Origin: a virus
Length of the DNA stretch: 64,000 bases
Strand: one strand, 5' to 3'
IMG/VR virus record: IMGVR_UViG_3300044911_002386
Coordinates: 62,001-126,000 of that record
This document shows, piece after piece, positions 1-64,000 of the stretch. The notes beneath the pieces were generated by a model, which did not search any database, was not told the origin of the DNA, and was given only the letters and a program-made list of their open reading frames with translations. A program made the position numbers and the translations under genes. Every line of letters starts with the position of its first letter. Within the stretch, counting starts at the first letter, position 1.

Positions 1-89
1 GATCTTGGTGCCGAATATGGCGGCGTGACGTCGCCCAGAATGGACGGCATACCTTTTGGGCTATTCGTTTGCGGCATGTTTGGTTTCAT
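1..89 (-). CDS. Partial tail-region protein (N-terminus only)
   Basis: The reading frame starts with an ATG that overlaps the TGA stop of the preceding hub-like gene (ATGA overlap) and stays open to the window edge. About 29 residues are visible, beginning MKPNMPQTNSPKGMPS, rich in Pro, Ser and Gly. Too little is present to assign a family. The coupling suggests it belongs to the same tail/baseplate operon. Confidence 0.5.
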   Translation of the reverse strand, partial: MKPNMPQTNSPKGMPSILGDVTPPYSAPR

Positions 90-1753
90 GTGTATTTAAT
101 TTTTGAGGAGAGCGGGCCGCCGGCCCAGCGTTCATTGTATAACGGCGGCGTGTCGGACCCAGCGATTAAACGATCGTCGTTTTCAGCAGGTGAACGAATA
201 TGTGATACGGAAAACGCCGTACCTGCGTTTGCGTTTTCAGCGTTAATGGAGAACGAAACTTGCACGACAGTTGCTATCATGTCCGTGTTATCTGACAACT
301 GCGGCATGTTTTCTGTGGGTGCTTTAATTTTAATGACGCTGCCCGGAGCTATATCAAAGCGTAACTTGCCGGAAAACTCGCCGTAACGCTGCTGCAGTAA
401 TTCTGTTTTAAACCACTGTTCGGCAAACCTGTCTAACACCGGACTGTCTTTTATATTTTGCTGCAGTTCAGATTCTTTTTTTGCTTTTTCTGTAGCGTCG
501 GCACCTTTGCTGGCGTCGTTATTAGCGCCTAGCACGCTACCGCTTAACCCGGCCGTCCGAGATGTATTCGATATTTTGCTCATGATGTTGCCGAACCAAC
601 TCGGTGGTTCTTTTACAAGCACAGTGCCCGGCCGCGTTTTGCGGGCTTCATGTGACGGAAAAAGACCTGGCGGGTCGCAAAACGACGGCGGGCGATAATC
701 GTTCTGTACCGGCGTGCCGGCGACTAAACCAGAGCCAAAACTTGCAGGCCAGATAATGTCTATGCCGCCAAGTGTTTGACGGGTGTTGCCCATAAAATTA
801 GCGTAGCCGTACTCGTCAGCGTAAACGACTTTGTCGCCGTCGCGCCACTTTAACCCGCCGAAGACAGGCACGACTTGTGCAAAGTCAACTCCGGGCGACA
901 GTGCGAACAAAAATTGCGGTGCGTATTCGCCGGTAAGTTTGCTCCAAAAAGTTGAGTAACTAAACGCTTGCACGCCAACTTTTGTTAAAGCATCGTTGAC
1001 GGAATCTCTAATGAGATCTCCCGTAAGCCCGCCGGGGCCGTCAAGGTTTAAGCCAAGTTTTACTTTGTTCGGTGCGGAGCCAGGCATCTTCTCTAAGGCC
1101 GCTTTGATCTTTTTTTCATGCTCGGTGTCTACGCCTGTGGCGCACTTATTCGTGCCCCAACCAGCAATAACTGTTAGAACAGGCTTCAGCACATCGCCCC
1201 ACAGGTCGTTCGTGATATTTGAATACGTTATGATTTGATTGTCAGGATCAATTGCCGGGGCCATTACAAAGCCAGAGCCCTGTGCCTGGTTCGTCGCCGT
1301 GTAGTAGCCCGCGTTATCGGCTACGTTAAACGGCGCCCCGGGGAACCACTGCCCGTTTAACATCGAGCCTATGTTTAAGTCATCGAGCCAGTGCACTAGG
1401 TGCAGCGTGTAATTTGCATTATTGTTCGAACGCTGAAAACCAAACCCCGCATAGTATCCGTCAAACACCATGAACGTTTTTTCGCTCGGCATTTTTTCCT
1501 TGTAGCCATCGGTCGTGTCTACTTCTAAGTACACGGACACGCGAGCACGTGACTTTATTTTGCCCATAATTTTTGAGTGGGCACTGGCCTGCGCGTTCGT
1601 TGTAGCGTTAATACCGCAAGCCAAAATGAGTGCAGCTGTTGGAATCGTGTTTAACGCAAAGTTGCCGGATATGGCGACAATATCGTCTACACGCCCGATG
1701 TCTTCTATCATGGCGTAAAGTTTAAACTGCGAGAATACGTAATTGTCAGGCAT
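86..1753 (-). CDS. Putative tail hub / baseplate protein
   Basis: This 555-residue protein lies two genes beyond the tape measure and spike in the transcription direction, where contractile phages encode baseplate hub proteins. Its C-terminal third contains a beta-rich segment (KLRFDIAPGSVIKIKAP, then a hydrophobic strand and FSVSHIRS) that resembles the final beta-barrel of gp27/gpD-like hubs. A low-complexity Lys/Glu/Ser stretch precedes that domain. No enzyme motif is visible. It overlaps the upstream gene by 8 bp (ATGCCTGA), so it is probably translated by coupling. The hub call is an inference from position and fold pattern; another baseplate role is possible. Confidence 0.5.
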   Translation of the reverse strand: MPDNYVFSQFKLYAMIEDIGRVDDIVAISGNFALNTIPTAALILACGINATTNAQASAHSKIMGKIKSRARVSVYLEVDTTDGYKEKMPSEKTFMVFDGYYAGFGFQRSNNNANYTLHLVHWLDDLNIGSMLNGQWFPGAPFNVADNAGYYTATNQAQGSGFVMAPAIDPDNQIITYSNITNDLWGDVLKPVLTVIAGWGTNKCATGVDTEHEKKIKAALEKMPGSAPNKVKLGLNLDGPGGLTGDLIRDSVNDALTKVGVQAFSYSTFWSKLTGEYAPQFLFALSPGVDFAQVVPVFGGLKWRDGDKVVYADEYGYANFMGNTRQTLGGIDIIWPASFGSGLVAGTPVQNDYRPPSFCDPPGLFPSHEARKTRPGTVLVKEPPSWFGNIMSKISNTSRTAGLSGSVLGANNDASKGADATEKAKKESELQQNIKDSPVLDRFAEQWFKTELLQQRYGEFSGKLRFDIAPGSVIKIKAPTENMPQLSDNTDMIATVVQVSFSINAENANAGTAFSVSHIRSPAENDDRLIAGSDTPPLYNERWAGGPLSSKIKYT

Positions 1754-3232: not shown

Positions 3233-3242
3233 TTTCGACTCG

Positions 3243-21407: not shown

Positions 21408-21549
21408 AAAAGATTTTGGACCGCGATTCTGTAACATGTCCACGGTTCGCGAACTGCGGACAAGCGACATATTCCAAATTCGCGAATTGCGAAAGTGCTA
21501 GGAAACAAAGCACTTACGTCAAATTTTCCAGTTTCCAGAATGAGATAGT

Positions 21550-23408: not shown

Positions 23409-24335
23409 TCACTTGAAGTCAACACGGGCCAGACCGTTCGTATGACCGAACGAACCACCCTGCGTGTTGTAGGCAAAGTACTCAAGCATGTAAGCCTCAC
23501 GACGGATGTACATCGTGGTGGGTTCCAGCTCGTAGTTCTTGCCGATAAACTTCGGCGAAGCGAACATGAACAGCGAATCGTCCGGAACGAGGTCGCGCTT
23601 GATCGTGACGATCCAGCGGCAGTTCAGGAAGTTGGTTTCAGCCCAGCCATTCTTGATGATGTCCTGGCTGAAATCGCCACCCATTTCGTCGCGGCCGAAC
23701 TTGAGAAGTTCCTTGATCGTGATGTTATTCACGAGGCAGGTCTCAACTTCAAAGTGCGACGGCGTACGGGGCATAACCTTGAGGGCGTCAACCAGCGTTT
23801 CGCGGGTGATGCCACCAGAGATTTCCTCGTACTGAACCGTTTCCGACATCGTGACTTCGGTGCCAGGCGTCGGGAGTACGGCCTTGAAAGCGGCAATAAA
23901 CTTCGAGTCTTCCTCGGCGAGCATGTCCTTGATCATGTTGTCGCTGAGCACCTGACGGATGTCGATGACATACGTACGGAGTTCGTCGACGTCCTTCACA
24001 GCACGGGGCGACACGATCCGGTCAAACATGACGCGGTAGCGCGGGCCACGGATGTAAAAGTTGATCGGGAGTGTCGCAAACGGAAGCGACACAGCCGCCG
24101 GGGAATCGGGCTCCTTGTCCACAACCTTGACGGGCTTGTCAGTGTCAACCTGACGGTCGAGCTCGTCGTTGGTGATGGTCAGCGGCGGCATAATCCGCCG
24201 GTAGAACCCGTCTTCACGCATCTTGGTGCGCGTGAAGTCGTTAACAGCATCAATGGCCTGCTTCTGCATGCCGGGGGTATCAAGCTGTTCAAACAGCGTC
24301 TCGTTGAGCAGTTGAACTTCTTGCTGAGTGGGCAT
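23409..24335 (-). CDS. Major capsid protein (probable)
   Basis: A 308-residue protein in the middle of the head gene cluster, downstream of protease and scaffold-like genes, with an excellent GGAGG site. The order of an N-terminal helical arm (about 1-45), an extended loop, a long helix rich in Asp/Glu around VDELRTYVIDIRQVLSDN, and a final beta strand (YMLEYFAYNTQGG, HTNGLARVDF) matches the HK97-fold pattern. Size is typical for a mature-type coat protein. The (TTAG)n spacer lies directly upstream. Confidence 0.72.
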   Translation of the reverse strand: MPTQQEVQLLNETLFEQLDTPGMQKQAIDAVNDFTRTKMREDGFYRRIMPPLTITNDELDRQVDTDKPVKVVDKEPDSPAAVSLPFATLPINFYIRGPRYRVMFDRIVSPRAVKDVDELRTYVIDIRQVLSDNMIKDMLAEEDSKFIAAFKAVLPTPGTEVTMSETVQYEEISGGITRETLVDALKVMPRTPSHFEVETCLVNNITIKELLKFGRDEMGGDFSQDIIKNGWAETNFLNCRWIVTIKRDLVPDDSLFMFASPKFIGKNYELEPTTMYIRREAYMLEYFAYNTQGGSFGHTNGLARVDFK

Positions 24336-26897: not shown

Positions 26898-28352
26898 TTA
26901 CATGATGTAATTTTGCAGTACACAGTGGTTTGCTGTCAACAAGTTATTTCCGTATTTATCACAAATGGCGGCGAAAGCGGCAATCTTATACAACGCGTAA
27001 TGTTGCGCAAGTGCTGTTTCTGCGTTCCCAGTTGCTTGTTTCTCACACGGAATGTTATCTAACCGAGCGTTACGAATCGCGGCTAAGTATGCACGCTTTT
27101 CGATGTTACTCGGTAATACGCTGTGGGTTTGCGCTACTTTCTCTGCCCACACCCTAACAGCAGCCGGAGCCACACTCGAAGGGTAGTAAACATTATTCTC
27201 CAAAAGCGTCGCCATGTCTAGATCATTTGCAACTTTTGTAAAAATATTGGGCAGGGCTTTCGCAACAGCCCCGACGAGGTCCTCACTTGCTGTCTTTAAA
27301 GTCAGTGCTAAAAAGTCGCGCAGCGGCAGGATAACACCGGCGTCAGCCAGCCCACGCAACACGTCTGACATTTTAACAAATGAGCACGCACTTACATCAA
27401 TAGGCGGCTGTACTTCCGGCGATGAAGCCAGGGCAAGTTTGGTCCACTCAGCACTGTTCTGGGTGGCTTCGGCTTGGACAAGTAAGTTTAAAGCCTCTAA
27501 CTGTGCGTGAGCCCGCTTGCTTGAGTTACCATCTAAGTTAAATCCAATCGGTGCGGTGACGCCAAGGTGCTCAGCCAATTCAGCGCCAGAAAGAATGGCT
27601 GTACCAGCGGCTTTTTCAAGCCGGCCAGATACATACGCAATTCGGTCAGCCGGGCGAAACACGTGAGAAATGTCAAAAAACGCACACTTCGTATTGTCGG
27701 CGTGTAGCACGTGACCGTCCGCCAGCACCCGACCGATGTTGTGCTTTAAACCGCCCGCCTTGCAGTGCCCGCCGTTCTCTGGTGAGTCGCAATACTCAGC
27801 CCGGGTACGAGCCGTGTTGCCGCAAGAAGAGCATTTGTCGAAAGGAATTTTGCAGGCCATCGATACCGGGATCTCTTTCCCGTTGGCCAGTTTCTCAAGT
27901 TCTTTGTCAGCAATTAAACCGCCATTGCGATCGGCCGCTTCTTTTGTGCCATTTAACGCGCAGACAAGTTCAATTCGGTGCATGGGCTCGTGGTAGGCAC
28001 TGGCCTTCACGATGCCGAATGACTTGGCCGGATTCTTGTTGGCGTGGTCCCGATAGAACCTGGCTAACTTTTCAAACGTGTTGTGATCTTTACGGCATGT
28101 GTCTCGTGTAAAGCCGTCGCCGTTGCGGTTCGGGCCGTAGTCCTCTGTGGCACCAATCGCGATCATGTGCACAGGAACTTCATCTTTTGCAAACTTAATG
28201 TTTTCAAGTTTATGGGCAAACTCCGCACCGGCTCGTTTAACGAATGCCTGCTTGTCGGCACCGATGAGGCCGCGGCTTGAGATCTTAATAATCTCCGCGA
28301 CTGGCTCACTAAAGTCTTGAGCGTGCGGCTGAATAACTTTGATCATGCTCAT
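26898..28352 (-). CDS. Prohead maturation protease (probable)
   Basis: A 484-residue protein upstream of scaffold and capsid genes. The first ~250 residues match the prohead protease pattern: an early GATEDYGPNRNGDGF loop, a histidine in RFYRDHANKN (about 101), a SAYHEPMHRIELV strand, and a serine in IPVSMACKIPF (about 161) like the SMG-type nucleophile region. A cysteine cluster follows (CSSCG, YCDSPENGGHC), seen in similar large-phage proteases. The C-terminal part is helical and may be a fused scaffold-like region. Catalytic residues are inferred by pattern. Confidence 0.68.
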   Translation of the reverse strand: MSMIKVIQPHAQDFSEPVAEIIKISSRGLIGADKQAFVKRAGAEFAHKLENIKFAKDEVPVHMIAIGATEDYGPNRNGDGFTRDTCRKDHNTFEKLARFYRDHANKNPAKSFGIVKASAYHEPMHRIELVCALNGTKEAADRNGGLIADKELEKLANGKEIPVSMACKIPFDKCSSCGNTARTRAEYCDSPENGGHCKAGGLKHNIGRVLADGHVLHADNTKCAFFDISHVFRPADRIAYVSGRLEKAAGTAILSGAELAEHLGVTAPIGFNLDGNSSKRAHAQLEALNLLVQAEATQNSAEWTKLALASSPEVQPPIDVSACSFVKMSDVLRGLADAGVILPLRDFLALTLKTASEDLVGAVAKALPNIFTKVANDLDMATLLENNVYYPSSVAPAAVRVWAEKVAQTHSVLPSNIEKRAYLAAIRNARLDNIPCEKQATGNAETALAQHYALYKIAAFAAICDKYGNNLLTANHCVLQNYIM

Positions 28353-29369: not shown

Positions 29370-30980
29370 TTACGCAAGTTCTTCTTGGAGTTTGCGGGCC
29401 GAAAGCATTGTTTGATCCCGCTCGGCTTTGAGTTTATCCATTTCAAGTAATTGTTTCGCGTCAAAATCGGCAAGTTGTCCGGCCTCTAAACGTTTCCGAA
29501 GCATGGCACGTAAGACAGCCGGGGACTGCACGACGTTTGGCGCCGCGTCGGCTACTTCATTAAACGCCAATGCTACTTCTTGAGGGCTATAACCAGAGAT
29601 GACGTCGTCATTAAGCATCAAGTCGTGAAGCGTGGCTTGAGCGCGAATATTTTTAAGCGTCAGTTCGTGGTCGGGCGAGGAGATCTCTTTCAACATCTTT
29701 AAACCAATGTCGCGCGGCTCTTTGTCTAAGCCAAGAATGCTTTTAGCCATCCCGGCTGGCGAGGCAGCACCAGCAAGACCAATTTGTTCACCAACAGTGT
29801 TGACTGGCCGGTTAGCACTCTCAAAAAACGTTTGTAAGTTTTTTTCGTAATTGCTGGCACCACCCTTGCCGCCACCGCCACCACCACGATTACCGCCGCC
29901 ACCGCCGCCACGGTTGCCCTGCGGCTTCTTCTCTTCCGGCTTTTCGGGCTTAGGAGATGGCTTTGCCGGCGGTGCAGGCGGTGCAGGCGGAGCAGGCGGG
30001 TTAATGCCGAATAATGTCGCCGCAAGACTCGGCGGTAATCCTGGCCCGGCAGATACAGGAAAATGCCCGCCACGCGGGCCTGCTGCTTGCTTTAAAGTTA
30101 CGCCGTTAGAGAAGTCTACCGGCGCCTGCAGCACCGAACCTGTAAGAAAAGTGGCTACTTTCTTATTACTAATTACTGGCGTCTTTTTTTTTAAGTCCGC
30201 GCTCGCTTTGACATATTCTTCCGTCAGGATAACAACATTTTGTACGCGGGCGTACAGGGGGTTATCGCCAAAGTGGTTGTTGTTCGTTGCCGCTTGCTTT
30301 TTAAACTGAGGATAAACTTCGGCCACCTTGTGCAGCACCGAAACACCCTCGTCGCCGAAACGTAAGCCAACCTGACGAACAGCGTCGGCGAACGACATGT
30401 TTCCCGGAGTGCGGAAATACTCAACTACGCCGTCAAGCGCCGCGGCGGCTTTAGAGTACGCAGCCGTAGCGATGCGGCGCCGCTCCTCGTCAGCCAACTG
30501 CTCGGCACGTTTGACGCTATAGGCCCGCTCAGCGGCGAATTGCTCGTCACGCGGATACGGCACATATGTCTTTGCCGGTAATGCCACTTGAGCCGCTGCG
30601 GCCTTCTCCTGCTCAGCCACGCGGCGAGCGAGCATGCCGGCAGGCGAAACGGCGTAGTCCGTAGATACAATTTCTTGCCGCACGATTTCTGCCGACGTTT
30701 TAACAGCCTTGGGGTACAGAGCATCTAAAACCGTGGGGGCGTCAGCCAGTTGGAAATCAGCCGACTTTTCAGTCGTGTTTTCGCCTTGTTCGCGTTGCTT
30801 GGTGGTGCGGCCTGTGTTGTACGCATGCACCATAAGGTTAATATGCCCCGCGGGAATATCGGCGGCGGCGGCACTCTTAATGATTGCAGCGTTTGGCGAT
30901 AGCCCTTCGTTGACTAATGCTGCAGCTTTTTCAATCGCAGCAATTAACTTTTGTTCGGCTTCTTTGCTCAATGTCTGCAT
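29370..30980 (-). CDS. Virion-region protein with RGG/Gly-rich linker
   Basis: A 536-residue, mainly helical, Ala/Lys-rich protein. Around residues 330-375 it has PAPPAPPAPPAKP, then a Lys/Glu/Pro segment and two GNRGGGGGG units, an unusual low-complexity linker similar to RNA-binding RGG stretches. The C-terminal ~150 residues are helical (QATLHDLMLNDDVISGYSP and onward). No catalytic motif. It has a GGGAG site and overlaps nothing. It is probably a virion or internal head protein. Confidence 0.58.
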   Translation of the reverse strand: MQTLSKEAEQKLIAAIEKAAALVNEGLSPNAAIIKSAAAADIPAGHINLMVHAYNTGRTTKQREQGENTTEKSADFQLADAPTVLDALYPKAVKTSAEIVRQEIVSTDYAVSPAGMLARRVAEQEKAAAAQVALPAKTYVPYPRDEQFAAERAYSVKRAEQLADEERRRIATAAYSKAAAALDGVVEYFRTPGNMSFADAVRQVGLRFGDEGVSVLHKVAEVYPQFKKQAATNNNHFGDNPLYARVQNVVILTEEYVKASADLKKKTPVISNKKVATFLTGSVLQAPVDFSNGVTLKQAAGPRGGHFPVSAGPGLPPSLAATLFGINPPAPPAPPAPPAKPSPKPEKPEEKKPQGNRGGGGGGNRGGGGGGKGGASNYEKNLQTFFESANRPVNTVGEQIGLAGAASPAGMAKSILGLDKEPRDIGLKMLKEISSPDHELTLKNIRAQATLHDLMLNDDVISGYSPQEVALAFNEVADAAPNVVQSPAVLRAMLRKRLEAGQLADFDAKQLLEMDKLKAERDQTMLSARKLQEELA

Positions 30981-30982: not shown

Positions 30983-31912
30983 TTATTCTCCCGGGAATCG
31001 CAGATTTTCGATCAGGGGCTGATTTTCTAGTTTACCACCAGTCGCCACAATGATCATTTCGCTGTTGTTTAATTCTGCCGCGCCACTATCAAAGGGTACC
31101 ATTTTTATAGCTTCAGAATCCAGTTTCGTCCCAACGCGGAATGGCAGGGCCGTCAACATAGCCCCGATATTCTCCACAATGGATACCTGCGCTTTAGTAG
31201 CGTTTTCTGTCGTTCTTTCAATTTCAACATATTTGGCGAACGAGTCGATAAGCGGTAATTGTGTATGCGTGTTGGCCTGCACGGTAAGCGTCGCCAGTGC
31301 CGCCTTGTACTTCATGGCACTAATTGCAAAATCCTGGAAAAAGCCAGAGACGTTCTCAGGGTTTTGCGGGCGGCTGACCGGGCAAAATCTGTTAATGACG
31401 GCATCTAGCACCATCGGGCCGCCGTGATAACCCATTAACTTCCAGAGCAAGTCGTAGTGTCGTTCCTGCAATCCGCGAGTAACGGCATCACCCATCACGA
31501 CATTCACAACATAATCGGTGTGGGCCATCTTTTCGCGAACATCAAAAAATACGTTGATATACGCGTTAATAATCTCTGGCGTCGTGCCGACCTTAGCAGC
31601 AATCTCGGCGTCCGTTTCTCCTGCTAATACACGGGCTTCCACGGCCCACTTTGACGGTGCTTTATCCTCCACCCACAGTGAGTGGGCCCAGAACAATTCC
31701 GGGTCGCGGAGATGCAGGGCGTACAATGCTTGCGGCCTGCTGCCAGCTAACTCAAAATGCCGTTTCAGCCGGCTAGCACGGCGTACCCACTTAAAGCCTT
31801 CCGCACCGTCTAATTTGCGAGACGCCTTGGGCCCGCCGGCATCAATATTTACCGCCCGCAGCCACCGCCAACTAGGCGACCGTCGAGGGTTATCGCGAAG
31901 GGCGTTTAGCAT
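30983..31912 (-). CDS. HTH-containing conserved protein
   Basis: A 309-residue protein, start TAATG-coupled to the upstream gene. At about residues 90-130 is a helix-turn-helix-like stretch (EARVLAGETDAEIAAKVG, then TTPEIINAYINVFFDVREKM). I recall similar LAG-x-T-D-x-x-I ... FFDVR sequences from phages and from Planctomycetes genomes, but not a function. The N-terminus is basic. A DNA-binding or small-terminase-like role near head genes is possible but unproved. Confidence 0.55.
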   Translation of the reverse strand: MLNALRDNPRRSPSWRWLRAVNIDAGGPKASRKLDGAEGFKWVRRASRLKRHFELAGSRPQALYALHLRDPELFWAHSLWVEDKAPSKWAVEARVLAGETDAEIAAKVGTTPEIINAYINVFFDVREKMAHTDYVVNVVMGDAVTRGLQERHYDLLWKLMGYHGGPMVLDAVINRFCPVSRPQNPENVSGFFQDFAISAMKYKAALATLTVQANTHTQLPLIDSFAKYVEIERTTENATKAQVSIVENIGAMLTALPFRVGTKLDSEAIKMVPFDSGAAELNNSEMIIVATGGKLENQPLIENLRFPGE

Positions 31913-32305: not shown

Positions 32306-34699
32306 TTAAGAGTTGGCAACGGGACCTAAGTCGACGTCGCTGTTGGCTTCTTCTGGATACGGCTCGATTGTCTTTTGCTTCAGGAACAAGATGACGTCGC
32401 CAAGCATCTCAAATGCGTTACGCAGCGAATCTTCCAGTTCCGGCATGTCGGCCTTGCCATAACGATCGGCAAACCGGTCGCCATGCCAATAAAACATAAA
32501 CAAGATGCGCCCCAGTTTGTCGAGGCCCTTTGTCAGTTCACCCATGTAGCGATCTACCATGCCGTCGTCGCGTACAGTTCGCAACATGGAGCCAATCATC
32601 GCTGTGTCAAATACTTCGCGTTGACCGCTTTGAGCGGCGTCGATTACCGAGCGTAAATCTTTTTGATCTAACTCAGTGTTCGGGTTGTAAACGCTGCGAT
32701 CCGTCTGACTAGCAGCCATGCCCGACACAGGCATACCGACGTCAATACCGAGTTGTGTTGGAACGCTCGTGCCCATGATGCTTTCGCCGCCCATGACCGC
32801 GCCGGGATCACTCGGAGCGTTCGGGGCACTGTTGATCATCATCGGGCTGCCGTACGGCTCGGCATATTTTACGCGGCACTCAAACTTTCGTTTATCAGCC
32901 GCTTGTTTCAGAATGTCGCGGGCGGCTTCTTCTCGTAAACCGTGCTGCCGTACTAACGACACCAGTGCCTGCTTTTCAGACAGTTCTTTTTCAACGAGTT
33001 GTTTTTGCCCGCTGTGAATCTCTACAGCGTGACCGTTATTTGTCACAGTTAAAGACGATGTTTTTTGCATCAACTCCATCTGGGCGTCAAGCAGGTTGCC
33101 CGGCATCAGCGGCGGATCTTTGCTTTCGCCGCAACCGCATGCACCCTGCCCTTCAGCCGAATCGACGTCGTCTTCGCCCGGCTCGCACTTCAGCATCTTG
33201 AACCCTTCCGGCACAAAGATGTCGCCCATGCTGGCACGCAGCGACGAACCCTTTTTACCGTTTAAATGCAGCCGCACGCCGTCGCGGTACTTGTCGTAAT
33301 TAAGCGGGTCAGAGTAGCAACACGGAGAAATGCTGCCCTTGGGCGGAAACTTTGTGTAATCCTCGAGATGCACTTCGTACACCGTCGAGCCATTTGTTTC
33401 GCCATATTCGCGAAGGCTCCGAACCGGGGCGGTAGTGTCGCCGCGCTTGTTAAGCAGCATTACGCGCGAGCGACCGGACGGAAGGCTTTTGGCTTCCGGA
33501 AGACCGTCATACCATTTGTCAAACTCTTCGCCCTCTACGCGGGAAAGTGCAAAAACATGGTCAGCCCGTGTGTTAATCCAGTCGGCTTTACCGTCAATGC
33601 GAACGACCGTGACGAAGTTAGACCGCTTGGCGGCACCCATCGGGAATACGGCCACGTAGCAGCGTTCAATATTGCCCGGCTTGACGAGGATTTCGTACAG
33701 ACCGCTCTCGGTCGGATTAAACAGCCGCTTCTCGACTTGGATATGGTAGGGAATCGAAACGTTGTCGCGATCCCGCTTGTCGAGAATCAGCACGCCGTCC
33801 CGCAAAAGTTTTTCCTGGTCTTCTTCTGTGTGACCCGGCGGTAACTTAGTCTGCACCGTCGTATCGAGCGTAATGACTTCAAGCGACTTTTCAGCCGCTG
33901 GCGTTTTGGGAGCCTCAGACAACACGCTCGCCACTTTTGTGCGGCTTACGCGAGCCGACGCCTGTGCTACGGCCTCTTTGACGATATTTAAACCGTGGAA
34001 CGAGTCGATGGCCTCGGCGAGTTCGGGGGCTTTCTTGCAGCTGTTAACCAGCGTGCTTAACATTTGCATGCTGGCTTCTTTTAAGAACGCCGGCAGGTTG
34101 ATCGCACTGCCAAGTTCGGCAAAAGCCTGGGCGGTATTCATCGTGGCCGATTTCGCAAATGCCGGCATGGCCGCAGTCATCATCTCTTTGAGCGTGGGCT
34201 GCGCCGAGCCGAACTTTGACGGGCTGCGGGAAAGTTGCGTGAAGTCCGGCTGCCGTTGGCCAAGATTCGACAGATTTCGATCGACGCCGTTGCCAAGGAT
34301 GTTCGGCTTTCGATTGATTAAATAGTTGATCCAGTTTTCTTTGAGCGGTACGAACATATCCTGATTTTTGATGTACAGGAGTTCGTGCCCTTTCAAGTCG
34401 CCGTTTAAAAAGAATACCGGGGCGTAAAGCCACTGGGCACCGACTTTAAAAGCAAATACGCCAACGGCTTTTGTGTTCTCGCGGTTGCGGTCCAATAATT
34501 GGAAACCGACTTCGTGATCAAGCAATTTGGGCGCTGAGTCACGCAAGTAAGCGTGGGCCAGGTTAGAAAACGCCTGTTCAAAAGAAGTGTCATCGCCACG
34601 GCCGCCAATTTCGGCCTGTTTGACTTGGCTGCGGTCGTGAGACCTAACTACCTTCAGCCAGTGCTGCCACGACGCTTCTTTTTTGCTTTTGTTGTACAC
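32306..34699 (-). CDS. Large virion-type protein, unknown
   Basis: About 797 residues from a GTG that lies five bases after GGAGG; an ATG four codons upstream overlaps that site and is less likely. The N-terminal ~140 residues form a domain (AFKVGAQWLYAPVFFLNGDLK) that I recall in hypothetical proteins of large phages. A CGCG cysteine cluster lies around residue 530. The C-terminal part is helical (MVDRYMGELTKGLDKLGRIL). It lies between the RNA polymerase and head genes. A virion role is possible, since it precedes RNA polymerase genes that might be packaged. Confidence 0.55.
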   Translation of the reverse strand: MYNKSKKEASWQHWLKVVRSHDRSQVKQAEIGGRGDDTSFEQAFSNLAHAYLRDSAPKLLDHEVGFQLLDRNRENTKAVGVFAFKVGAQWLYAPVFFLNGDLKGHELLYIKNQDMFVPLKENWINYLINRKPNILGNGVDRNLSNLGQRQPDFTQLSRSPSKFGSAQPTLKEMMTAAMPAFAKSATMNTAQAFAELGSAINLPAFLKEASMQMLSTLVNSCKKAPELAEAIDSFHGLNIVKEAVAQASARVSRTKVASVLSEAPKTPAAEKSLEVITLDTTVQTKLPPGHTEEDQEKLLRDGVLILDKRDRDNVSIPYHIQVEKRLFNPTESGLYEILVKPGNIERCYVAVFPMGAAKRSNFVTVVRIDGKADWINTRADHVFALSRVEGEEFDKWYDGLPEAKSLPSGRSRVMLLNKRGDTTAPVRSLREYGETNGSTVYEVHLEDYTKFPPKGSISPCCYSDPLNYDKYRDGVRLHLNGKKGSSLRASMGDIFVPEGFKMLKCEPGEDDVDSAEGQGACGCGESKDPPLMPGNLLDAQMELMQKTSSLTVTNNGHAVEIHSGQKQLVEKELSEKQALVSLVRQHGLREEAARDILKQAADKRKFECRVKYAEPYGSPMMINSAPNAPSDPGAVMGGESIMGTSVPTQLGIDVGMPVSGMAASQTDRSVYNPNTELDQKDLRSVIDAAQSGQREVFDTAMIGSMLRTVRDDGMVDRYMGELTKGLDKLGRILFMFYWHGDRFADRYGKADMPELEDSLRNAFEMLGDVILFLKQKTIEPYPEEANSDVDLGPVANS

Positions 34700-34778
34700 G
34701 GCCACCTCCATGCGGCACTAAACGTAACGAAACGCTGACTGTTTACTACTTTAGCGTGTTACAGCCTATTATCCTACA

Positions 34779-36662
34779 TTAAACGCCTTCCGGCTTCCAC
34801 CCGCTTGTAACACCTGTAACGCCAAATTGCTCGCCGCGGGCTAAAGCCGGGACGTAACTGCTGCCGGCCGCGTCGCTCGTTAAACCGCGGTGTACGCTGT
34901 TCAGCAGGCCTTTTTCTTGATACGACCCCAGCATGCGCGTCATCCAGTCCGGGTCGTGTGAGATGTTTGACATTCCGCGAATCATTTCAGGCTGAAACGG
35001 TGGGGGTTCTTTGTGCGCCTGCACGCTCGCGATGTTGTACTTTTTTAAGTTTTCGTTGACAGATTTACTTATTTTTGTGCCGATAGAATAATGCAGCACG
35101 GGCCGCTCAAGATAATGCCCTGTTAACGTTGTAGGGTTGCCCGCAACGCTCCCCGGGCGCGGCTGCCAGTTGCGCTCCAGCATCGAATACGGCACAACGT
35201 CTTCTGGCGCGTGGTCGCCGTATTCGTCGAGCATGCGGACATGATTCACAATGCCTCGCGACAGCAATTCGATATTTCGGCGGTGCGGGCTCATGCCGCT
35301 GTTTTTCATAACTTGCCGCATAGCTTGCGTAAAGTAACGCCGGCCCTCGCCAATACCCTTGTGCTTAACAATCTCGGCCGGATTCGGCATGCCGTCTGAA
35401 ATCGCGTCGCCGGCTTCAAGTGTGTCGCCCTTTTTAACGGCGACAGTGCGGTCGGCCCCGACGTAGTGTTCTTCGCCGTCGATGGTGACGTATACGCCGC
35501 CTTGCGGTGCTTGGCGGATCTCCTGCACTTTGCCGTCGCGCTGGGCGTGAGCGGCGCCATCCGGGTATGTCTTCGGCACCTGTACCAAGGCATTTAACGC
35601 CTTGAAGCCAGAAATAGACCCGGCACCGCCGACACCGCCAGAATGCTTCGACGACAATTGCCCCTGCGATACCGGCTCGGAGAGCGCCTGAACTGCTGCA
35701 ATTCCAACGTAGTCACCGGCCGGCGGTAGCCGGCCCTTTTCGCGAAATCCGACGTCTTTAGCGAAAACTCCGCCGTCACTCGGACCGCCCACAGTCGGGC
35801 TGCGGACAAGAATATCCTTGACGCCCATTTTTTTAATGTCTTGCAGGATTTTGGGCGTCAGGACCGTGTTTCGTTTATACGGCCCCGCAGGTCGCGAAAG
35901 CAGGGCACCTTCGTTATCCGGGTCATCGACGTCTGTAGGGAAGCCACGCTCGCTCGCTGTGCTGTTCCATTCTTCGTCATCGTCATCGTCGGCGGTAACG
36001 AGCAGGCGGTGCGCCATTTGGGTCAATTGCTTGCCGTAAAAGCCGGCGTCTGCCGTAGCCGTCTTAGTATCAATTACACCCTTGCGGGCGCCGAAGGCGC
36101 CCGCAAAATACTCGGCGGGTCTTAAGCCTCGGCTGTAACTGTGCAGCACCGGCAAAGGAATCGGATCGTTTTTGTGGTCGACATATTGCATGTCGGCACC
36201 AATGATCGAATTCAGCGAGTATTTATTGCCGACACCAGACCCCAACACCTGGTGCATCAAAGGATTATCATTACCTTTAGCCTCGGCATAAACGTCCTCT
36301 ACTAGTTTCTGCTGAATAGTTGAGGCTAGTTCTAGGATCTTCTGCGTTCGCTGTTCTTCGGAGAATTTGCCGTTCGCCATGATCGCACGCAGACCGGCAC
36401 GAGCCTTTATCTGGGCATGGCGAGCGGCAAGCGTCTGCTTAATATCTTTGAGCCCGAAAGACAGGCCGCCGGTCGTATGGGCCGACTCGTGAGCGACGTC
36501 GTGCAGCCGCTTCATGACATCTCGATATTTGTCTGGGTACTGCTCGGCTAGTTTTGTCGCCAAGGCACCCATCGTCTTTTTATCTAAGACACGATCGTAG
36601 TCCCGCAGATCTTCCGGGAGTGCGTCGTTAATCAGAATTTGACCAAGCGTGGTTTTTAACAT
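34779..36662 (-). CDS. RNA polymerase beta-prime subunit, C-terminal part
   Basis: A 627-residue protein starting at an ATG coupled by TGATG to the upstream stop. It opens with LKTTLGQILINDALPEDL, equal to the TTVGRAILWMIVP strand that follows the catalytic site in bacterial beta-prime. The bridge helix region is at about 180-221 (EYFAGAFGARKGVIDTKTAT). The trigger loop follows VGIAAVQALSEP (319-330); its His (340) matches E. coli H936, while positions equal to M932 and R933 are Leu and Ser. It completes the fused protein encoded at 37552-41925. I expect the two to form the phage RNA polymerase core. Confidence 0.88.
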   Translation of the reverse strand: MLKTTLGQILINDALPEDLRDYDRVLDKKTMGALATKLAEQYPDKYRDVMKRLHDVAHESAHTTGGLSFGLKDIKQTLAARHAQIKARAGLRAIMANGKFSEEQRTQKILELASTIQQKLVEDVYAEAKGNDNPLMHQVLGSGVGNKYSLNSIIGADMQYVDHKNDPIPLPVLHSYSRGLRPAEYFAGAFGARKGVIDTKTATADAGFYGKQLTQMAHRLLVTADDDDDEEWNSTASERGFPTDVDDPDNEGALLSRPAGPYKRNTVLTPKILQDIKKMGVKDILVRSPTVGGPSDGGVFAKDVGFREKGRLPPAGDYVGIAAVQALSEPVSQGQLSSKHSGGVGGAGSISGFKALNALVQVPKTYPDGAAHAQRDGKVQEIRQAPQGGVYVTIDGEEHYVGADRTVAVKKGDTLEAGDAISDGMPNPAEIVKHKGIGEGRRYFTQAMRQVMKNSGMSPHRRNIELLSRGIVNHVRMLDEYGDHAPEDVVPYSMLERNWQPRPGSVAGNPTTLTGHYLERPVLHYSIGTKISKSVNENLKKYNIASVQAHKEPPPFQPEMIRGMSNISHDPDWMTRMLGSYQEKGLLNSVHRGLTSDAAGSSYVPALARGEQFGVTGVTSGWKPEGV

Positions 36663-36901
36663 CACGGTGTCCAGATAATATCTTGAAGCGGCTTGGGTTT
36701 AAATTCTGTTATTTTTACAGTCTTAGTAATGCCGAGAGATCGAAGCACGGACTGGAAGTCGGGGTCATTTACCGTGGAAAACACAATTGACTCGGTCAGT
36801 TGTGTTGCCACGATAATTGGATTACCCATGTCGTCTTCAATTACGACGCTATGGGCCGGCGTGTCCGCTGGTTGCAGGTTAAATTGCGTTTTAACCCGCA
36901 T
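36662..36901 (-). CDS. Small protein between RNA polymerase genes
   Basis: A 79-residue acidic protein with beta/alpha pattern (HSVVIEDDMGNPIIVATQL, then SVLRSLGITKTVKITEF). It is coupled on both sides by overlaps, so it is co-translated with the beta-prime C-terminal part. It could be an accessory subunit of the phage polymerase; I see no omega-like motif. Confidence 0.58.
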   Translation of the reverse strand: MRVKTQFNLQPADTPAHSVVIEDDMGNPIIVATQLTESIVFSTVNDPDFQSVLRSLGITKTVKITEFKPKPLQDIIWTP

Positions 36902-37535
36902 TGCTCTCTAAACTCCTCCGTAACGCCTTGATCGCCGACGCCTTGGTATGCAGATCTAAAATCTGACCGGCATTCCAGTTGGCACCTTTCGCCATCTCAG
37001 GCGGCATAGCCTCGGGAGGCATACCACCGGGAGGCATACCAGCCGCGGCAGGGTCTTGCGGCGGAGGCGGAGCCATAGGACCGCCGGGGAGAGCCGATTC
37101 GGCAGGCGGGGCACCAGTCGTGCCCGGAGGAAGAACAAGCGACTCAGGAGCGACTTGCACGCCCATGGCGTTCATAATCGATGTTAACTGCTGTTGCATG
37201 TTGTACAGCCGCATATCGATCATCTGCATCATCTGCTCAGGCTTTAACTTCTGGCCGCCGGCCGGCGCAGCGGGAGCGGGCGCAGCCGCAGGCATCGCAG
37301 CGGGGGCGGGAGCACCTCCCATTGCAGCCATCGCGGTGGCCGGATCAACCGGTGCAGCCGGGCCGGCGGGTGGAACGGCACCCATAGCAGCCGGGTCCAT
37401 AGGCGGCGCACCGCCCATAGAAGGATCAACAGGCGGGGCTGCACCCATAGACGGGTCACCGCCGCCAGGCGGAACGACGGCCGACTTCTCGAATTGATCG
37501 CGGGCCATCGACATTAAATACGGGTTGATCGCCAT
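36891..37535 (-). CDS. Pro/Met/Ala-rich protein between RNA polymerase genes
   Basis: The start MAINPYLMSMARDQF follows GGGAGG by six bases, giving 214 residues. Residues of about 25-95 are repeats of the PPMDPSMGGA type, followed by a helix (LKPEQMMQMIDMRLYNMQQQL), another Pro/Gly-rich stretch and a basic helical end. This is the layout of a flexible linker protein with two short binding helices. Its location between the two polymerase genes suggests a role with the enzyme or its packaging; no function is known. Confidence 0.58.
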   Translation of the reverse strand: MAINPYLMSMARDQFEKSAVVPPGGGDPSMGAAPPVDPSMGGAPPMDPAAMGAVPPAGPAAPVDPATAMAAMGGAPAPAAMPAAAPAPAAPAGGQKLKPEQMMQMIDMRLYNMQQQLTSIMNAMGVQVAPESLVLPPGTTGAPPAESALPGGPMAPPPPQDPAAAGMPPGGMPPEAMPPEMAKGANWNAGQILDLHTKASAIKALRRSLESNAG

Positions 37536-37551
37536 GAAAGCCTCCCTGTGT

Positions 37552-40500
37552 CTATTTATCTTCCACAATGTGTACGGGCGTGTCTACGTTGATTTCGCCG
37601 CGCCGGTAAGCCGCCACAGCCTCTAGTTTGCTTTTAAACACGCGTGGTTTACTGCGTTGATTTATTCTACTCGATGCTAGGTACAGCCCAGTCTGGTAAT
37701 CCTTGTTTGGAACGTAGTGAGCCTTGAAGCTGGACGTACTAAACAAGTTCTTACTAGGTAACATCTTATCAAGTGCTTCTTTTGCCGCCTCATTTGTGCT
37801 GGGAACGTGATATTGCATAGCGTCCCCGTCAAAATCTGCACCAAACCCCTTCGTGATTACCGGGTTAACCTCCATGACCTTATTTTTGGTCAAGCGCGGT
37901 TTAAATGCCATCACGCCGTAGCGGTGCAAGACGGGCGCCCGGTTAATTACAATGGGCTTAGCGTTCATCTGGGTGTTTAATTCGTCGAAGGCGGCTTTGT
38001 TTTTGTCTTCAACAGCCTGGAGTGCCTGCATTCGAGGTAAGCCACGACGAACAAGGCCGCGAATAACAAACGGCTTGTAGATATCCCAGGCTTTCTCTTC
38101 AGGCAGGGCTACTTCGTCCATATCCAGATCAGAGTTCGGCGTAATGACAGCGCGGCCGACCAAGTCAACAGTGCTCGAAAGCAGTTTTCGCTGCATGGTG
38201 CCGAATTTAGGACTGTCGCCGAAGATCTTGGCTAAAAACCCCTGGACGTTCTTTTCGACGTTCTTGGGGTTAGTCGGAGCACCTAAGCCAGTCACACCCT
38301 TCATTGAGTTGTAAACAGCCAGCCGCTCGTCGCCATAGTCTGATAAGGCCCCAGATGCTTCTTTCAGTGTTGAATTAGCATCAAATAACTCTTTGTAAAG
38401 GTAATTGGGGTTATCTACGAGCGGGAGCTTCTTTGGCCCCATCGTCGACACAGGGCGGAAAGCAGGCGGAATAACTGGAACCTGATTAATCATCCAGTCT
38501 TTCGGATGGATATTGGTCGATTCGGCTGACTTAAGGAATCCAAGGCGCCGAACAGCCTCATCCCGAACTGTCTTCCGACCAGACTTGATGTCTTCCCTTG
38601 CCTGCTCGATGGCTTTAGGGAGATTAATGCTGGCCAGGGCTTGTTGAATAGCCTTGGGGCCTGTTGCGTCACCCAGTTGTTCCCGGCCGGCCAAGATCCC
38701 CAGGAATTTCTTCTCTGTCAGGCCCAAGACGCGGCGAATAGGTTCTTCCATGACGGGATTGGGCATCGGCTCTTGAAGCGTAATCTTTGCCCACCGACTG
38801 CCGCCATGACCGCCCGTAAGTGACTCATCAAACAAGCCGCCTTTAATGGGCTTGAGATTTCCCTTCCAATCGACAGTCTCGGCGCTCTTGAGTTCCCGGT
38901 CGCCTGTAAGGGCCGCGGCGTCTTTGTCTGTCATGGCCATAATGTGCGTCTTGGTTCCAGTCCGCACAGTATTGATGCCAGCACCCTTTAATTGATTTAC
39001 GAACTTCTCATACACGTGTGGAACCTTGGGCAGCGGAGCGTCATACCCGGCCATGAATTGCGACCAGTACTCAGGGTTCGCTTGGCCACGTACCATCTTG
39101 GCGTCGCGGATTACTTTGCCAGCACCGTGCGAAAGCAAAGCCCCCAGTTCCAGCATGCCGACACGCTTTGCACCCTCAGAGCCGCCTTTGGCCGGTGTAC
39201 CTTCGGCTGTATAACCCGCCATCGCTCGGCCCTGGCCTTTGGATTCAGCCGTGTGGTGCAGTTTCATGAAAAACCGCTGGCCAGTTAATATTCCAGGAAT
39301 TTTATGGCCGCTCTCTGGGTTAATAACTTCTTCGGTGTCAGATAACCCGTGCTTGGCGAGTTCCTGCTGTGCAAACTCGACCAGGTCTTTCTCACTGTCG
39401 AAATCTTTGATCTTGTACGGTTTACCGGTCTTAGCCGCGACTTTACCCAACGCTGCTTCAATAATCTGGGCAGGGTTCACGCGTGAAATTAAACCAAGCG
39501 GGCTGACAAGCACTTCAAATGGGTTGCCGTCTTTGTCGTGCGGCATTTGATTATCCGGCACAACTTCCGCAATGACGCCCTTATCCCCGTAGCGACCAGT
39601 TAACTTATCGCCCGACTCCATCTGGGCCTGGCTCTTTACAACCACGGACACGCCCTTCTTTGTGTGCTCGACGTCAGTGACAATACCTGGCGAATGATGG
39701 TCCCAGGTCAGCGTGTCATTCGAGAAACTACCTGCCCGGCCGCGGTGCACTTTTCCGTACACCTGTTCTTTCTTTTTGGCGACTAGCACTAACGGGTCGC
39801 CGAAGTTGACGGTCGTGCCTTTTTTGATCGCGCCCTGGTCGTCAAAGTTATCGAGCAGTTTTTTGTCGTACTCACTGGGAAACAGACTGACAAACGCCTT
39901 TTTACCGACGTGCGTGTTGTCGTCCCACTCGGCCTCGTTCTGGTACATGTGCTCAGACGTTAGGCGCTTGGCCGCGGATTCCGAGATCACGATGGCGTCT
40001 TCGTAGTTCTTGCCGCGGAAAGGCACATACGCCACACGCATATTCATGCCGAGGGCTGCCGCTCCGCTCTTATCGGTAAAGTTGCTTGTGGCGATAATCT
40101 GGCCGGGTTTAATCACGTCGCCGGGCTGAACGGCTGCTTTTTGCGTCCAGAACGTCTTCCGATTAAACGGCATGTCGTTGTACAAGTCGACGGTCTTTTT
40201 CGTACCGTCACGCAGCCGAAGAACAATGTTGTCGGGTGTAACCTGTAGCACCTCGGCAGGCTCGTCTGCTTTAACCGTGCCCATCTTGGCGCCGATCAGA
40301 TCTTCGTGCGATATGTTCTCGTCGTCATTTGTAGCAGACTGTACGAGCGGGGCTTCGGCGTTTACGAGCGGCAAAGCCTGTGTAAACATTCGAGCGCCCA
40401 TGATCACGCGCTGCCCTTTGACCATAGACTTCATCGGCACCATGTTTGTAAGTGCCGAGAAAGTGTTGTCCATGTTCGGAACGGTGTACTGTGCGTCTTT

Positions 40501-41925
40501 CCGCGGTACATACTTAATCTTGCCGCCAACTAGTGCCGCAACCATCGGAAGATCTGACTTGTCTTCACCGGGGAACATCAGCGGCATGTCCGTAAGTTCT
40601 TGCGGCGTTTTGTATTCGGTTTTCCCGGTGTTTGCATTCCGCACCGGGATTACGAACGTATGTAAGTTTTTCCCGCTTTTTCGTGCCCCGGCGGCAAAGC
40701 GCATGTCCACGCCGACCTTGCCAGATTCCGGCGTACGCAAATAGTCAATGAATCCGAAATGGCTTGGCTGCACCGAGCGCGATTCGGCCGGGATGGCGTC
40801 CATGCTGCCGATCCCGCCTTCGCCGAGCCGGGTGACGCGCGTTTGGTGGTCAAAGATTTCGGCCGGGTTGATTTCTTCAAGACTTGATCCAAGGCCGGAC
40901 CCTAAAAGAGCGGCCTGAATCGACTTATTGAACACGCCAGTCGGAATGTGGTCTAAAGATTTTTTTGCCGTGGCTTTCCAGAGCAGTTGCCGCAGCACCG
41001 AGCGGTCTTTAACGAAACGCTCTGCCAGCAGGTCCTCGGGGCCGAACACAGACTGAAACGCCATGCTGTCTCGATCGTCCGAGTCCGCCTCTTTGCGATT
41101 AACGGCAATCAGTTTTTTCGTGATGTCGAGAATGGCGTCAGGCGTTAAATTTTTGTACGGCTTGCCCAGCGTTCGACTAGTGACTTCTTCGTCGAACTCT
41201 GTTTTGTTGAACTCAGTGGCAATAGCCTTGATCTTCGCCAGTTCATCCGCTTTCGGATCTGGCGAGTACACAAGGCGCTGATAAAGTTTGTCGAGTGTTC
41301 CGGCGTCACCTTGCTGCATGTTGACAGCAGTGATCTCGTTACCCCAGGTATCACGCAGTTGTTTGTCTGTGACACCAAGAGTTTTCAAAAGCGGCATCAG
41401 CGGAATCTGCGCCTGCCCAATTTGAATTTTGAACACACCAGTTTGCGGGTCTAAGTAGTACCGGTGCGAACGGCCTTTACCTGGAAGCGTGTTAACGTGG
41501 GCCTCTAACTCGCCGTTGTCTTTTTGTCTGGTAAACACGCCGGGACGCAAACGTAATTGATGAGCCAGCGTGTATTCGACGCCCTTGTTCACGAATGTGC
41601 CGGAGTCCGTTAAGTACGGCACACTGGCTAACGTGACGGGCCGATTGGCGACGGGCGTATTCGTCTTGTTATCCGTCAGCGTCCATGTGCCACGGAGTTT
41701 TCGCGACAGGTTGCCGCGTGTAAGCACAGCACGCTTTTGATCGGCTTTGGTAAACGCTTCCGGGCCGTCGTACGCTACGTCGTTTAATTGCAGCGTGTAC
41801 AGATCGTTTTTAATTGGCTCGATGCTCTGTGCACTCTGCAAAGCATTGTTAAAAATGCTTTGACGCAAAGCGGGAACATCGCCAAATTCGCGGGGCTGTT
41901 CTTGAGGCGCGTTTAAGGGCAGCAC
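37552..41925 (-). CDS. RNA polymerase beta / beta-prime N-terminal fusion
   Basis: A 1457-residue protein; the GTG start lies six bases after GGAGG. Residues of about 1-1000 align in order with bacterial beta: PYLTDSGTFVNKGVEYTL (103-120), fork region, NYEDAIVISE (640-649), and GDKLTGRYGDKGVI (772-785) with both active-site lysines. At about 1010-1031 beta-prime begins (LKPIKGGLFDESLTGG), then the PPAFRP region and NRAPVLHRYG. The metal site is GADFDGD (1362-1368): the three Asp are present, but the usual first Asn is Gly. It ends soon after, where the separate C-terminal gene takes over. No intein is visible. Enzymes of this kind let a phage transcribe its genes independently of the host. 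Confidence 0.93.
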   Translation of the reverse strand: MLPLNAPQEQPREFGDVPALRQSIFNNALQSAQSIEPIKNDLYTLQLNDVAYDGPEAFTKADQKRAVLTRGNLSRKLRGTWTLTDNKTNTPVANRPVTLASVPYLTDSGTFVNKGVEYTLAHQLRLRPGVFTRQKDNGELEAHVNTLPGKGRSHRYYLDPQTGVFKIQIGQAQIPLMPLLKTLGVTDKQLRDTWGNEITAVNMQQGDAGTLDKLYQRLVYSPDPKADELAKIKAIATEFNKTEFDEEVTSRTLGKPYKNLTPDAILDITKKLIAVNRKEADSDDRDSMAFQSVFGPEDLLAERFVKDRSVLRQLLWKATAKKSLDHIPTGVFNKSIQAALLGSGLGSSLEEINPAEIFDHQTRVTRLGEGGIGSMDAIPAESRSVQPSHFGFIDYLRTPESGKVGVDMRFAAGARKSGKNLHTFVIPVRNANTGKTEYKTPQELTDMPLMFPGEDKSDLPMVAALVGGKIKYVPRKDAQYTVPNMDNTFSALTNMVPMKSMVKGQRVIMGARMFTQALPLVNAEAPLVQSATNDDENISHEDLIGAKMGTVKADEPAEVLQVTPDNIVLRLRDGTKKTVDLYNDMPFNRKTFWTQKAAVQPGDVIKPGQIIATSNFTDKSGAAALGMNMRVAYVPFRGKNYEDAIVISESAAKRLTSEHMYQNEAEWDDNTHVGKKAFVSLFPSEYDKKLLDNFDDQGAIKKGTTVNFGDPLVLVAKKKEQVYGKVHRGRAGSFSNDTLTWDHHSPGIVTDVEHTKKGVSVVVKSQAQMESGDKLTGRYGDKGVIAEVVPDNQMPHDKDGNPFEVLVSPLGLISRVNPAQIIEAALGKVAAKTGKPYKIKDFDSEKDLVEFAQQELAKHGLSDTEEVINPESGHKIPGILTGQRFFMKLHHTAESKGQGRAMAGYTAEGTPAKGGSEGAKRVGMLELGALLSHGAGKVIRDAKMVRGQANPEYWSQFMAGYDAPLPKVPHVYEKFVNQLKGAGINTVRTGTKTHIMAMTDKDAAALTGDRELKSAETVDWKGNLKPIKGGLFDESLTGGHGGSRWAKITLQEPMPNPVMEEPIRRVLGLTEKKFLGILAGREQLGDATGPKAIQQALASINLPKAIEQAREDIKSGRKTVRDEAVRRLGFLKSAESTNIHPKDWMINQVPVIPPAFRPVSTMGPKKLPLVDNPNYLYKELFDANSTLKEASGALSDYGDERLAVYNSMKGVTGLGAPTNPKNVEKNVQGFLAKIFGDSPKFGTMQRKLLSSTVDLVGRAVITPNSDLDMDEVALPEEKAWDIYKPFVIRGLVRRGLPRMQALQAVEDKNKAAFDELNTQMNAKPIVINRAPVLHRYGVMAFKPRLTKNKVMEVNPVITKGFGADFDGDAMQYHVPSTNEAAKEALDKMLPSKNLFSTSSFKAHYVPNKDYQTGLYLASSRINQRSKPRVFKSKLEAVAAYRRGEINVDTPVHIVEDK

Positions 41926-63662: not shown

Positions 63663-63956
63663 TTATAACTGGGAGGGCGTCGCTTGTCGGCCTGCCTTTT
63701 GGGCGGCGGCTTTTTGCTGTAAAAATGGGATGTTAATTTTGCTCAAATCTGGCTGAAGGTCTTTTAATGCTGGCAACGACCAGGACTCTTCATCCTCCGT
63801 GCCGCCCGACTCATTGTTTTCTGGCTTTGTCACTGGTTTACGGGTCGCCCGGCGGAGCACGCGCTTTTTCGTCTTTTTGACCTTCCCTGCCGCCGGTTTC
63901 CGTTTTCGACGGACCACCTTCTTCACGGCTTCTTCCTCGGCGGTCTGGTTGTTCAT
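63663..63956 (-). CDS. Basic/acidic two-part protein, possibly partial
   Basis: From MNNQTAEEEAV it has 97 residues: a Lys/Arg-rich histone-tail-like part (about 12-45, KKVVRRKRKPAAGKVKK) and an acidic then helical end. The frame remains open upstream to the window edge (NALGKKLYQRVLGA), so this may be the C-terminus of a longer protein. A competing frame ends in TGA overlapping this ATG, which would support the short form. DNA or RNA binding is likely. Confidence 0.5.
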   Translation of the reverse strand: MNNQTAEEEAVKKVVRRKRKPAAGKVKKTKKRVLRRATRKPVTKPENNESGGTEDEESWSLPALKDLQPDLSKINIPFLQQKAAAQKAGRQATPSQL

Positions 63957-64000
63957 GGCACCGAGCACCCGCTGATACAGTTTTTTACCCAGTGCATTGC

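What the first reader, a model, noticed from the sequence alone, without database searches (positions are those of the whole stretch)
34779..41925. Phage RNA polymerase: beta fused to beta-prime N-terminus, beta-prime C-terminus separate
One gene holds all beta landmarks (NYED, GDK...DKG) then beta-prime up to the DFDGD metal site; bridge helix and trigger loop are in a second gene. phiKZ-type phage enzymes split both beta and beta-prime, and Helicobacter-type fusions are not split. The split point lies just before the TTVGR strand, close to the rpoC1/rpoC2 boundary of cyanobacteria. I do not know a described phage enzyme with this exact layout.
Basis: partly seen in the sequence, partly recalled or inferred. 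Interest (0 to 1): 0.9.

Follow-up and report, generated by a model that had tools for sequence, protein, structure and literature searches.

The report
Fused-then-split phage RNA polymerase
This phage encodes its own bacterial-type RNA polymerase cut into an unusual pair of pieces, one long protein holding all of the beta subunit plus the first part of beta-prime and a second protein holding the rest; the same layout recurs in dozens of related phages, and in one cultured relative both pieces are abundant in purified virus particles.

Summary
ORF 37552-41925(-) (1457 aa) carries beta fused, without a linker, to the N-terminal part of beta-prime up to the catalytic GADFDGD. ORF 34779-36665(-) (628 aa) carries the rest, with bridge helix and trigger loop. 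The break falls in a short loop just before the TTVGR strand and removes no catalytic domain.

It is not a one-off: 71 distinct complete fused genes were found, 61 with a complete separate beta-prime-C gene on the same stretch, none with both in one ORF. Four phages in the GenBank collection share it (Salmonella phage Arash; Vibrio phages D69, D148, D181). None of 80 bacterial control contigs is both fused and split.

All 20 large genomes surveyed have one such polymerase; 19 encode a sigma-70-type protein; no alpha (0/20) or omega (0/15) homolog was detected. In the published Arash virion proteome the two chains and a sigma factor occur at similar spectra per residue, and the polymerase genes are collinear with the capsid block here.

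Best reading: a sigma-dependent polymerase with a two-chain core, packaged in the virion and delivered for early transcription. Catalysis and delivery are inferred. A new, clade-wide variant of a known kind.

The parts
37552..41925 (-). Fused beta + beta'-N chain (BB), 1457 aa, GTG start
   Evidence: Pfam Rpb2_6, Rpb2_3, Rpb1_2; PDB profile search
38959..41925 (-). Beta part of BB (about residues 1-989); catalytic lysines K774 and K782 near 39606-39580
   Evidence: alignment to E. coli RpoB
37552..38958 (-). Beta'-N part of BB (from about residue 990), with GADFDGD metal site at about 37822-37842
   Evidence: alignment to E. coli RpoC; Rpb1_2
36891..37568 (-). Pro/Ala-rich ORF between the two polymerase genes (likely ATG start near 37535); conserved in the window's subclade, not found in Arash or D69; role unknown
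34779..36665 (-). Beta'-C chain (BC), 628 aa, from the TTVGR strand onward
   Evidence: Pfam Rpb1_5; PDB profile search; AlphaFold2 model and Foldseek
36012..36119 (-). Bridge helix, BC residues 183-218
   Evidence: model secondary structure, alignment
35640..35708 (-). Trigger-loop helix, BC residues 320-342, with the conserved His at BC341
32306..34711 (-). Homolog of Arash virion protein gp218
   Evidence: profile search; gp218 in virion proteome
30983..31912 (-). Homolog of Arash gp219
29370..30980 (-). Weak homolog of Arash virion protein gp220
26898..28352 (-). Homolog of Arash virion protein gp222
23409..24335 (-). Homolog of Arash major capsid protein gp226
1..95 (-). Start of the phage sigma-70-type gene (record 61268-62095), homolog of Arash virion sigma gp10; most of it lies outside the window
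   Evidence: phmmer; Sigma70_r3 and Sigma70_r4
63666..64000 (-). 3' end of a Snf2-type helicase gene (record 125666-129205), homolog of Arash virion helicase gp217

Best explanation
This is a bacterial-type multi-subunit RNA polymerase whose catalytic core is two polypeptides. Chain 1 (beta fused to beta'-N) brings both double-psi barrels, and so the three metal-binding aspartates and both catalytic lysines, into one molecule. Chain 2 (beta'-C) supplies bridge helix, trigger loop and the rest of beta'. They assemble non-covalently across a hairpin loop. The fusion plausibly replaces the alpha-dimer/omega platform that joins beta and beta' in cells; no alpha or omega homolog was found in these phages. 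Promoter recognition is probably by the phage's own sigma-70-type protein. The enzyme is made from the capsid gene block, packaged in the virion, and delivered with the DNA to transcribe early genes. Shown here: domain content, active-site residues, clade-wide conservation, one detected polymerase per genome, an encoded sigma-type protein, no detectable alpha or omega, and collinearity with capsid genes. Shown by others for one relative: both chains and a sigma factor detected in purified virions. Inferred: catalysis, sigma use, delivery, early transcription.
For: Domain and residue mapping. Models and Foldseek. Conservation: 71 distinct complete fused genes, 61 with a complete separate beta'-C gene, 0 with both in one ORF; 80 bacterial control contigs, none both fused and split. 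One clade in the tree (bipartition UFBoot 95 in the newick). One Rpb2_6 polymerase in each of 20 genomes of 176-224 kb; sigma region 3 in 19/20; alpha 0/20; omega 0/15, of which 11 belong to this family. Own sigma and Snf2 helicase homologs. Arash virion proteome (PMC10585845): gp206 3516 spectra (the most of any protein), gp216 1210, sigma gp10 467; per residue 2.31, 2.00 and 2.00, against portal 1.51 and capsid 4.34. Collinear order RNAP - gp218 - gp219 - gp220 - gp222 - gp225 - capsid in both phages.
Against: No activity, virion or expression data for this uncultivated phage. The Arash authors themselves offer carry-over of abundant proteins as an alternative. Spectral counts are a rough measure of stoichiometry. 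Arash and the window chains share only about 32% and 25% identity. The host could supply alpha or omega. Beta' Asn458 is Gly here, the beta' N-terminal zinc ribbon is missing, the second zinc site is lost in the window (kept in Arash), and the flap tip is shortened, so promoter and transcript handling may differ. The two chains could not be modelled together, and the BB model is moderate (mean pLDDT 71.8).
Confidence: 0.8

Rival explanations
1. A functional two-chain RNA polymerase that is not a virion enzyme: it is made during infection for middle or late transcription and only contaminates purified particles because it is abundant.
For: The Arash authors name this possibility (PMC10585845). 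Enzymes such as ribonucleotide reductase also appear in that proteome. The presence of a phage sigma would suit a late-gene programme.
Against: The fused chain is the most detected protein of the particles and both chains and sigma gp10 exceed the portal per residue, unlike ribonucleotide reductase (0.87). The genes sit in the capsid block in both lineages. No second polymerase that would serve early genes was found, although the host enzyme could do so.
Confidence: 0.15
2. The two chains work only together with host alpha and/or omega subunits, as a hybrid phage-host enzyme.
For: The phages encode no detectable alpha or omega, and the beta part is bacterial-like enough to be aligned over nearly its whole length.
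Against: A covalent beta-beta' fusion makes the alpha platform less needed; phiKZ/AR9-type phage polymerases work without alpha and omega (PMC7598289). Conservation of alpha-contacting residues was not analysed.
Confidence: 0.1
3. The genes are remnants or a domesticated non-catalytic virion protein, no longer a polymerase.
For: Loss of a zinc ribbon, shortened flap tip and N458G; very high copy in Arash particles.
Against: Aspartates, lysines and trigger-loop His are conserved in a clade with identities down to about 31%; no second polymerase was found.
Confidence: 0.03
4. The fusion or the split is an assembly or annotation artefact.
For: The window is a metagenome-derived record.
Against: The same boundaries appear in 71 distinct complete genes from many assemblies and in separately sequenced phages; in Arash the two genes are 4.8 kb apart with opposite-strand genes between them.
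Confidence: 0.01

Closest known systems
Salmonella phage Arash gp206 + gp216 (OQ632216; PMC10585845) and Vibrio phages D69, D148, D181
   Same: Same fused-then-split layout and domain boundaries; sigma-type gene present (Arash, D69); capsid-block synteny (Arash, in part D69)
   Different: About 32% and 25% identity; Arash keeps the second beta' zinc site; the Arash paper calls the chains beta and beta' and, in the passages I read, does not describe the fusion; in D181 the fused gene is interrupted by a group I intron with a homing endonuclease gene
phiKZ/AR9-type jumbo phage vRNAP and nvRNAP
   Same: Phage-encoded multi-subunit RNAP without alpha/omega; beta' split after the catalytic barrel; a virion form exists
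   Different: Beta is also split; 4-5 core polypeptides; two polymerases per phage; no recognisable sigma gene (PMC7598289, PMC7824862)
mReC phages (PMC7481178) and other msRNAP phages with Gp23 capsids (Cobetia Carin-5, Rhizobium RHph_Y65, Yersinia YerA41, Vibrio Va2)
   Same: Bacterial-type beta/beta' in a tailed phage
   Different: Beta and beta' in separate genes (seen in Carin-5 and YerA41); beta' intact, or split in YerA41; Gp23 capsid match, absent in this family. That these four phages are mReC members was not shown
Helicobacter/Wolbachia rpoBC fusion (from general knowledge)
   Same: Beta C-terminus joined to beta' N-terminus
   Different: Beta' not split; cellular
Cyanobacterial rpoC1/rpoC2 split
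   Same: Beta' divided after the catalytic barrel
   Different: Split roughly 15-30 residues further on, after the TTVGR-equivalent strand; beta separate
crAss-like and Thermus phage P23-45 single-chain RNAPs
   Same: Phage RNAPs with beta- and beta'-like parts in one polypeptide; P23-45 has a virion form fused to its tape-measure protein (PMC10770324)
   Different: Very divergent from cellular subunits; single chain rather than fused plus split

Membership tests
Bacterial-type multi-subunit (double-psi barrel) RNA polymerase | Beta and beta' Pfam domains with DxDxD aspartates, two beta lysines, bridge helix and trigger loop | tested here: met
Bacterial-type multi-subunit (double-psi barrel) RNA polymerase | RNA synthesis activity | not testable with these tools
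   no biochemistry available
Arash-type fused/split RNAP clade (defined here) | One ORF through beta and beta'-N, separate beta'-C starting at the TTVGR strand | tested here: met
phiKZ/AR9-type jumbo phage RNAP | Beta split into separate polypeptides | tested here: not met
   beta intact and fused
phiKZ/AR9-type jumbo phage RNAP | Two paralogous RNAPs (virion and non-virion) | tested here: not met
   one Rpb2_6 polymerase in the window record and in each of 20 relatives; a highly divergent paralog could be missed
phiKZ/AR9-type jumbo phage RNAP | No sigma-70-type gene | tested here: not met
   sigma-type gene present
mReC (Weinheimer and Aylward 2020) | Gp23-type major capsid protein (PF07068) | tested here: not met
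   0 of 9 family genomes, 4 of 4 other msRNAP phages as positive controls, one of them below the cut-off
mReC (Weinheimer and Aylward 2020) | PF03237-type large terminase | tested here: inconclusive
   window TerL matches PF05876 instead; Arash and one relative match PF03237 weakly; the four Gp23-capsid phages do not match
mReC (Weinheimer and Aylward 2020) | RNAP sequence inside the published mReC clade | not tested
   the published sequence list could not be read here
Virion RNA polymerase | Present in mature virions | not testable with these tools
   reported for the Arash homologs (PMC10585845); inferred here from synteny
Cyanobacterial-type rpoC1/rpoC2 | Beta' split at the same point | tested here: not met
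   BC residue 24 aligns to residues 5-12 of rpoC2 chains, so BC starts earlier

The most novel reading that the evidence does not exclude
A sigma-dependent virion RNA polymerase whose entire core is two chains, in which the beta-beta' fusion replaces the alpha/omega assembly platform and the beta' split allows delivery through the tail as smaller chains. With no second phage polymerase, this one enzyme would serve both early and later transcription.
Probability: 0.4. Interest if true: 0.8.

Novelty: new variant of a known kind. Interest (0 to 1): 0.62.

Why it matters
It would add an architecture to the known ways of dividing the two catalytic subunits of RNA polymerase: joined where cells usually keep them apart and cut where most cells keep beta' whole, held stably over a deep phage clade. 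If the two-chain core works alone, it is a natural test of what alpha and omega are needed for. Because a cultured member exists with a published virion proteome that includes its sigma factor, virion packaging, delivery and sigma-dependent initiation can be tested now.

Tried and rejected
Remnant or second polymerase: one Rpb2_6/Rpb1_5 polymerase in the record and one per genome in 20 relatives; a search for a T7-type polymerase (PF00940) found none, but no control rang, so it proves little. Membership of mReC: not met on capsid type, not tested on RNAP sequence. phiKZ type: rejected on layout, copy number and sigma. Sigma by PF04542 alone gave nothing; the factor was found through Arash gp10. 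Promoter motif: a k-mer scan of 78 upstream regions gave nothing clearly above shuffles. Prediction of both chains as a complex was not available. One literature query was rejected for its syntax.
Full report
What is there. The window is bases 62,001-126,000 of a 167,811-base virus record. On its minus strand lie a 1457-aa ORF (37552-41925, called BB here) and a 628-aa ORF (34779-36665, BC). Pfam places Rpb2 domains 3 and 6 and Rpb1 domain 2 in BB and Rpb1 domain 5 in BC. Profiles built from window, Arash, Vibrio D69 and metagenomic homologs match bacterial polymerases in the PDB: BB covers beta almost to its end and then beta' to about residue 548, and BC resumes at about residue 568 of the same chain, 6wmr_D. 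So the cut falls in a short loop and no catalytic domain is missing.

Residue map. Against E. coli beta ends near BB989 and beta' starts at about BB990 with no added linker. Catalytic lysines (K1065, K1073), the three aspartates (460/462/464) and the trigger-loop histidine (936) are all present. Missing or changed: the beta' N-terminal zinc ribbon (absent in Arash too), the second zinc site (lost in the window, kept in Arash), lineage inserts, part of the flap tip, and N458G. BC folds well (mean pLDDT 80.8) into the beta' C-terminal part with a 36-residue bridge helix; BB residues 258-1457 fold moderately (mean pLDDT 71.8) and match beta.

Where it splits. In cyanobacteria the second gene starts further on: BC residue 24 aligns to residues 5-12 of cyanobacterial rpoC2 chains, while BC itself begins with the KTTLGQ strand. 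The two splits are neighbours, not the same, and lie on opposite sides of that strand. Yersinia phage YerA41 and Escherichia phage EP_H11 also have beta' in two ORFs; in YerA41 beta is a separate gene. A split beta' is therefore not new in phages; joined to a fused beta it is, as far as I could find.

How widespread. A viral-contig scan with BB gave 55 loci and a profile scan gave 80 (the two sets overlap). A layout survey found 71 distinct complete fused genes; 61 have a complete separate beta'-C gene on the same stretch, with 639 to 5874 bases between BB's stop and BC's open frame, and none has both in one ORF. Relatives in the GenBank phage collection are Salmonella phage Arash and Vibrio phages D69, D148 and D181. 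Of 80 bacterial contigs 76 have beta and beta' separate and beta' whole; none is both fused and split. A tree of the shared beta' regions puts the family in one clade, bipartition support 95 in the newick, with a deep split between the window's group and Arash's. Long branches call for caution. The simplest reading is that the layout predates that split.

What goes with it. Twenty genomes of 176-224 kb each have one Rpb2_6 polymerase, 19 have a sigma region 3 protein (two of these below the Pfam cut-off), and none a detectable alpha; omega was absent in all 15 records tested, 11 of them of this family. The window's phage has a sigma-type homolog of Arash gp10 at record 61268-62095 and a Snf2-type helicase homolog of gp217 at 125666-129205. 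Downstream of BC the order of gp218, gp219, gp220, gp222, gp225 and capsid homologs is the same as in Arash, which places the polymerase in the capsid gene block in both.

Virion evidence. In the Arash proteome (PMC10585845) gp206, the BB homolog, is the most detected protein (3516 spectra); gp216, the BC homolog, has 1210 and sigma gp10 has 467. Per residue these are 2.31, 2.00 and 2.00, with the helicase at 2.43, portal 1.51 and capsid 4.34. Similar values fit, but do not prove, equal copies. The authors allow that abundant enzymes might be carried over.

What it is not. It fails three features of the phiKZ type: beta is intact, only one polymerase is found, and a sigma-type protein is encoded (compare PMC7598289, PMC7824862). 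It lacks the Gp23 capsid reported for mReC phages (PMC7481178), which four other polymerase-bearing phages have; whether its RNAP sequence falls in the published mReC clade was not tested. In the searches I ran, covering open-licence papers only, I found no description of the fused-then-split layout, so I treat it as an unremarked variant, not as proven unpublished.

Mechanism and limits. I think the two chains form the usual crab-claw enzyme; the fusion makes the alpha platform unnecessary; sigma gives promoter choice; and the enzyme travels in the virion. The last three steps are inference. No activity data exist for this phage, and the two chains could not be modelled together.

Noticed in passing
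L055 (IMGVR_UViG_3300022723_000184), 2580-13648 and 15629-21640: The polymerase genes of this relative appear to carry nine inteins: six in the fused chain and three in beta'-C, the last two only about nine residues apart at the trigger-loop motif. They have Cys/Ser starts and Asn|Ser/Thr ends; Pfam finds intein or LAGLIDADG domains in each of the three ORFs but not at every site, and one frameshift lies near 9602.
   Followed up: partly
L029, L033, L034, L044 (at BB ~401); L013 (at BC ~328): Single in-frame intein-like insertions at sites shared with L055, suggesting repeated use of the same insertion points.
   Followed up: partly
L105, L111, L133, L143, L146, L127, L139: Further large in-frame insertions at other positions in either chain, probably inteins.
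   Followed up: no
L059 (Vibrio phage D181) 7440-7720 and 3643-3850: Two group I introns (Rfam RF00028, about 100 bits each); the first interrupts the fused chain at about BB500, next to a homing endonuclease gene.
   Followed up: partly
L155 (JAMOSO010000003.1, Planctomycetota MAG) 8657-16516: A 2620-aa ORF spanning rpoB and complete rpoC, a fused but unsplit cellular-type polymerase.
   Followed up: no
L101 (14823-18446) and L141 (15952-18762): Beta'-C ORFs of 1208 and 937 aa with long C-terminal extensions of unknown nature.
   Followed up: no
window 36891-37568: Pro/Ala-rich ORF between the two polymerase genes, conserved in the window's subclade, not found in Arash or D69.
   Followed up: partly
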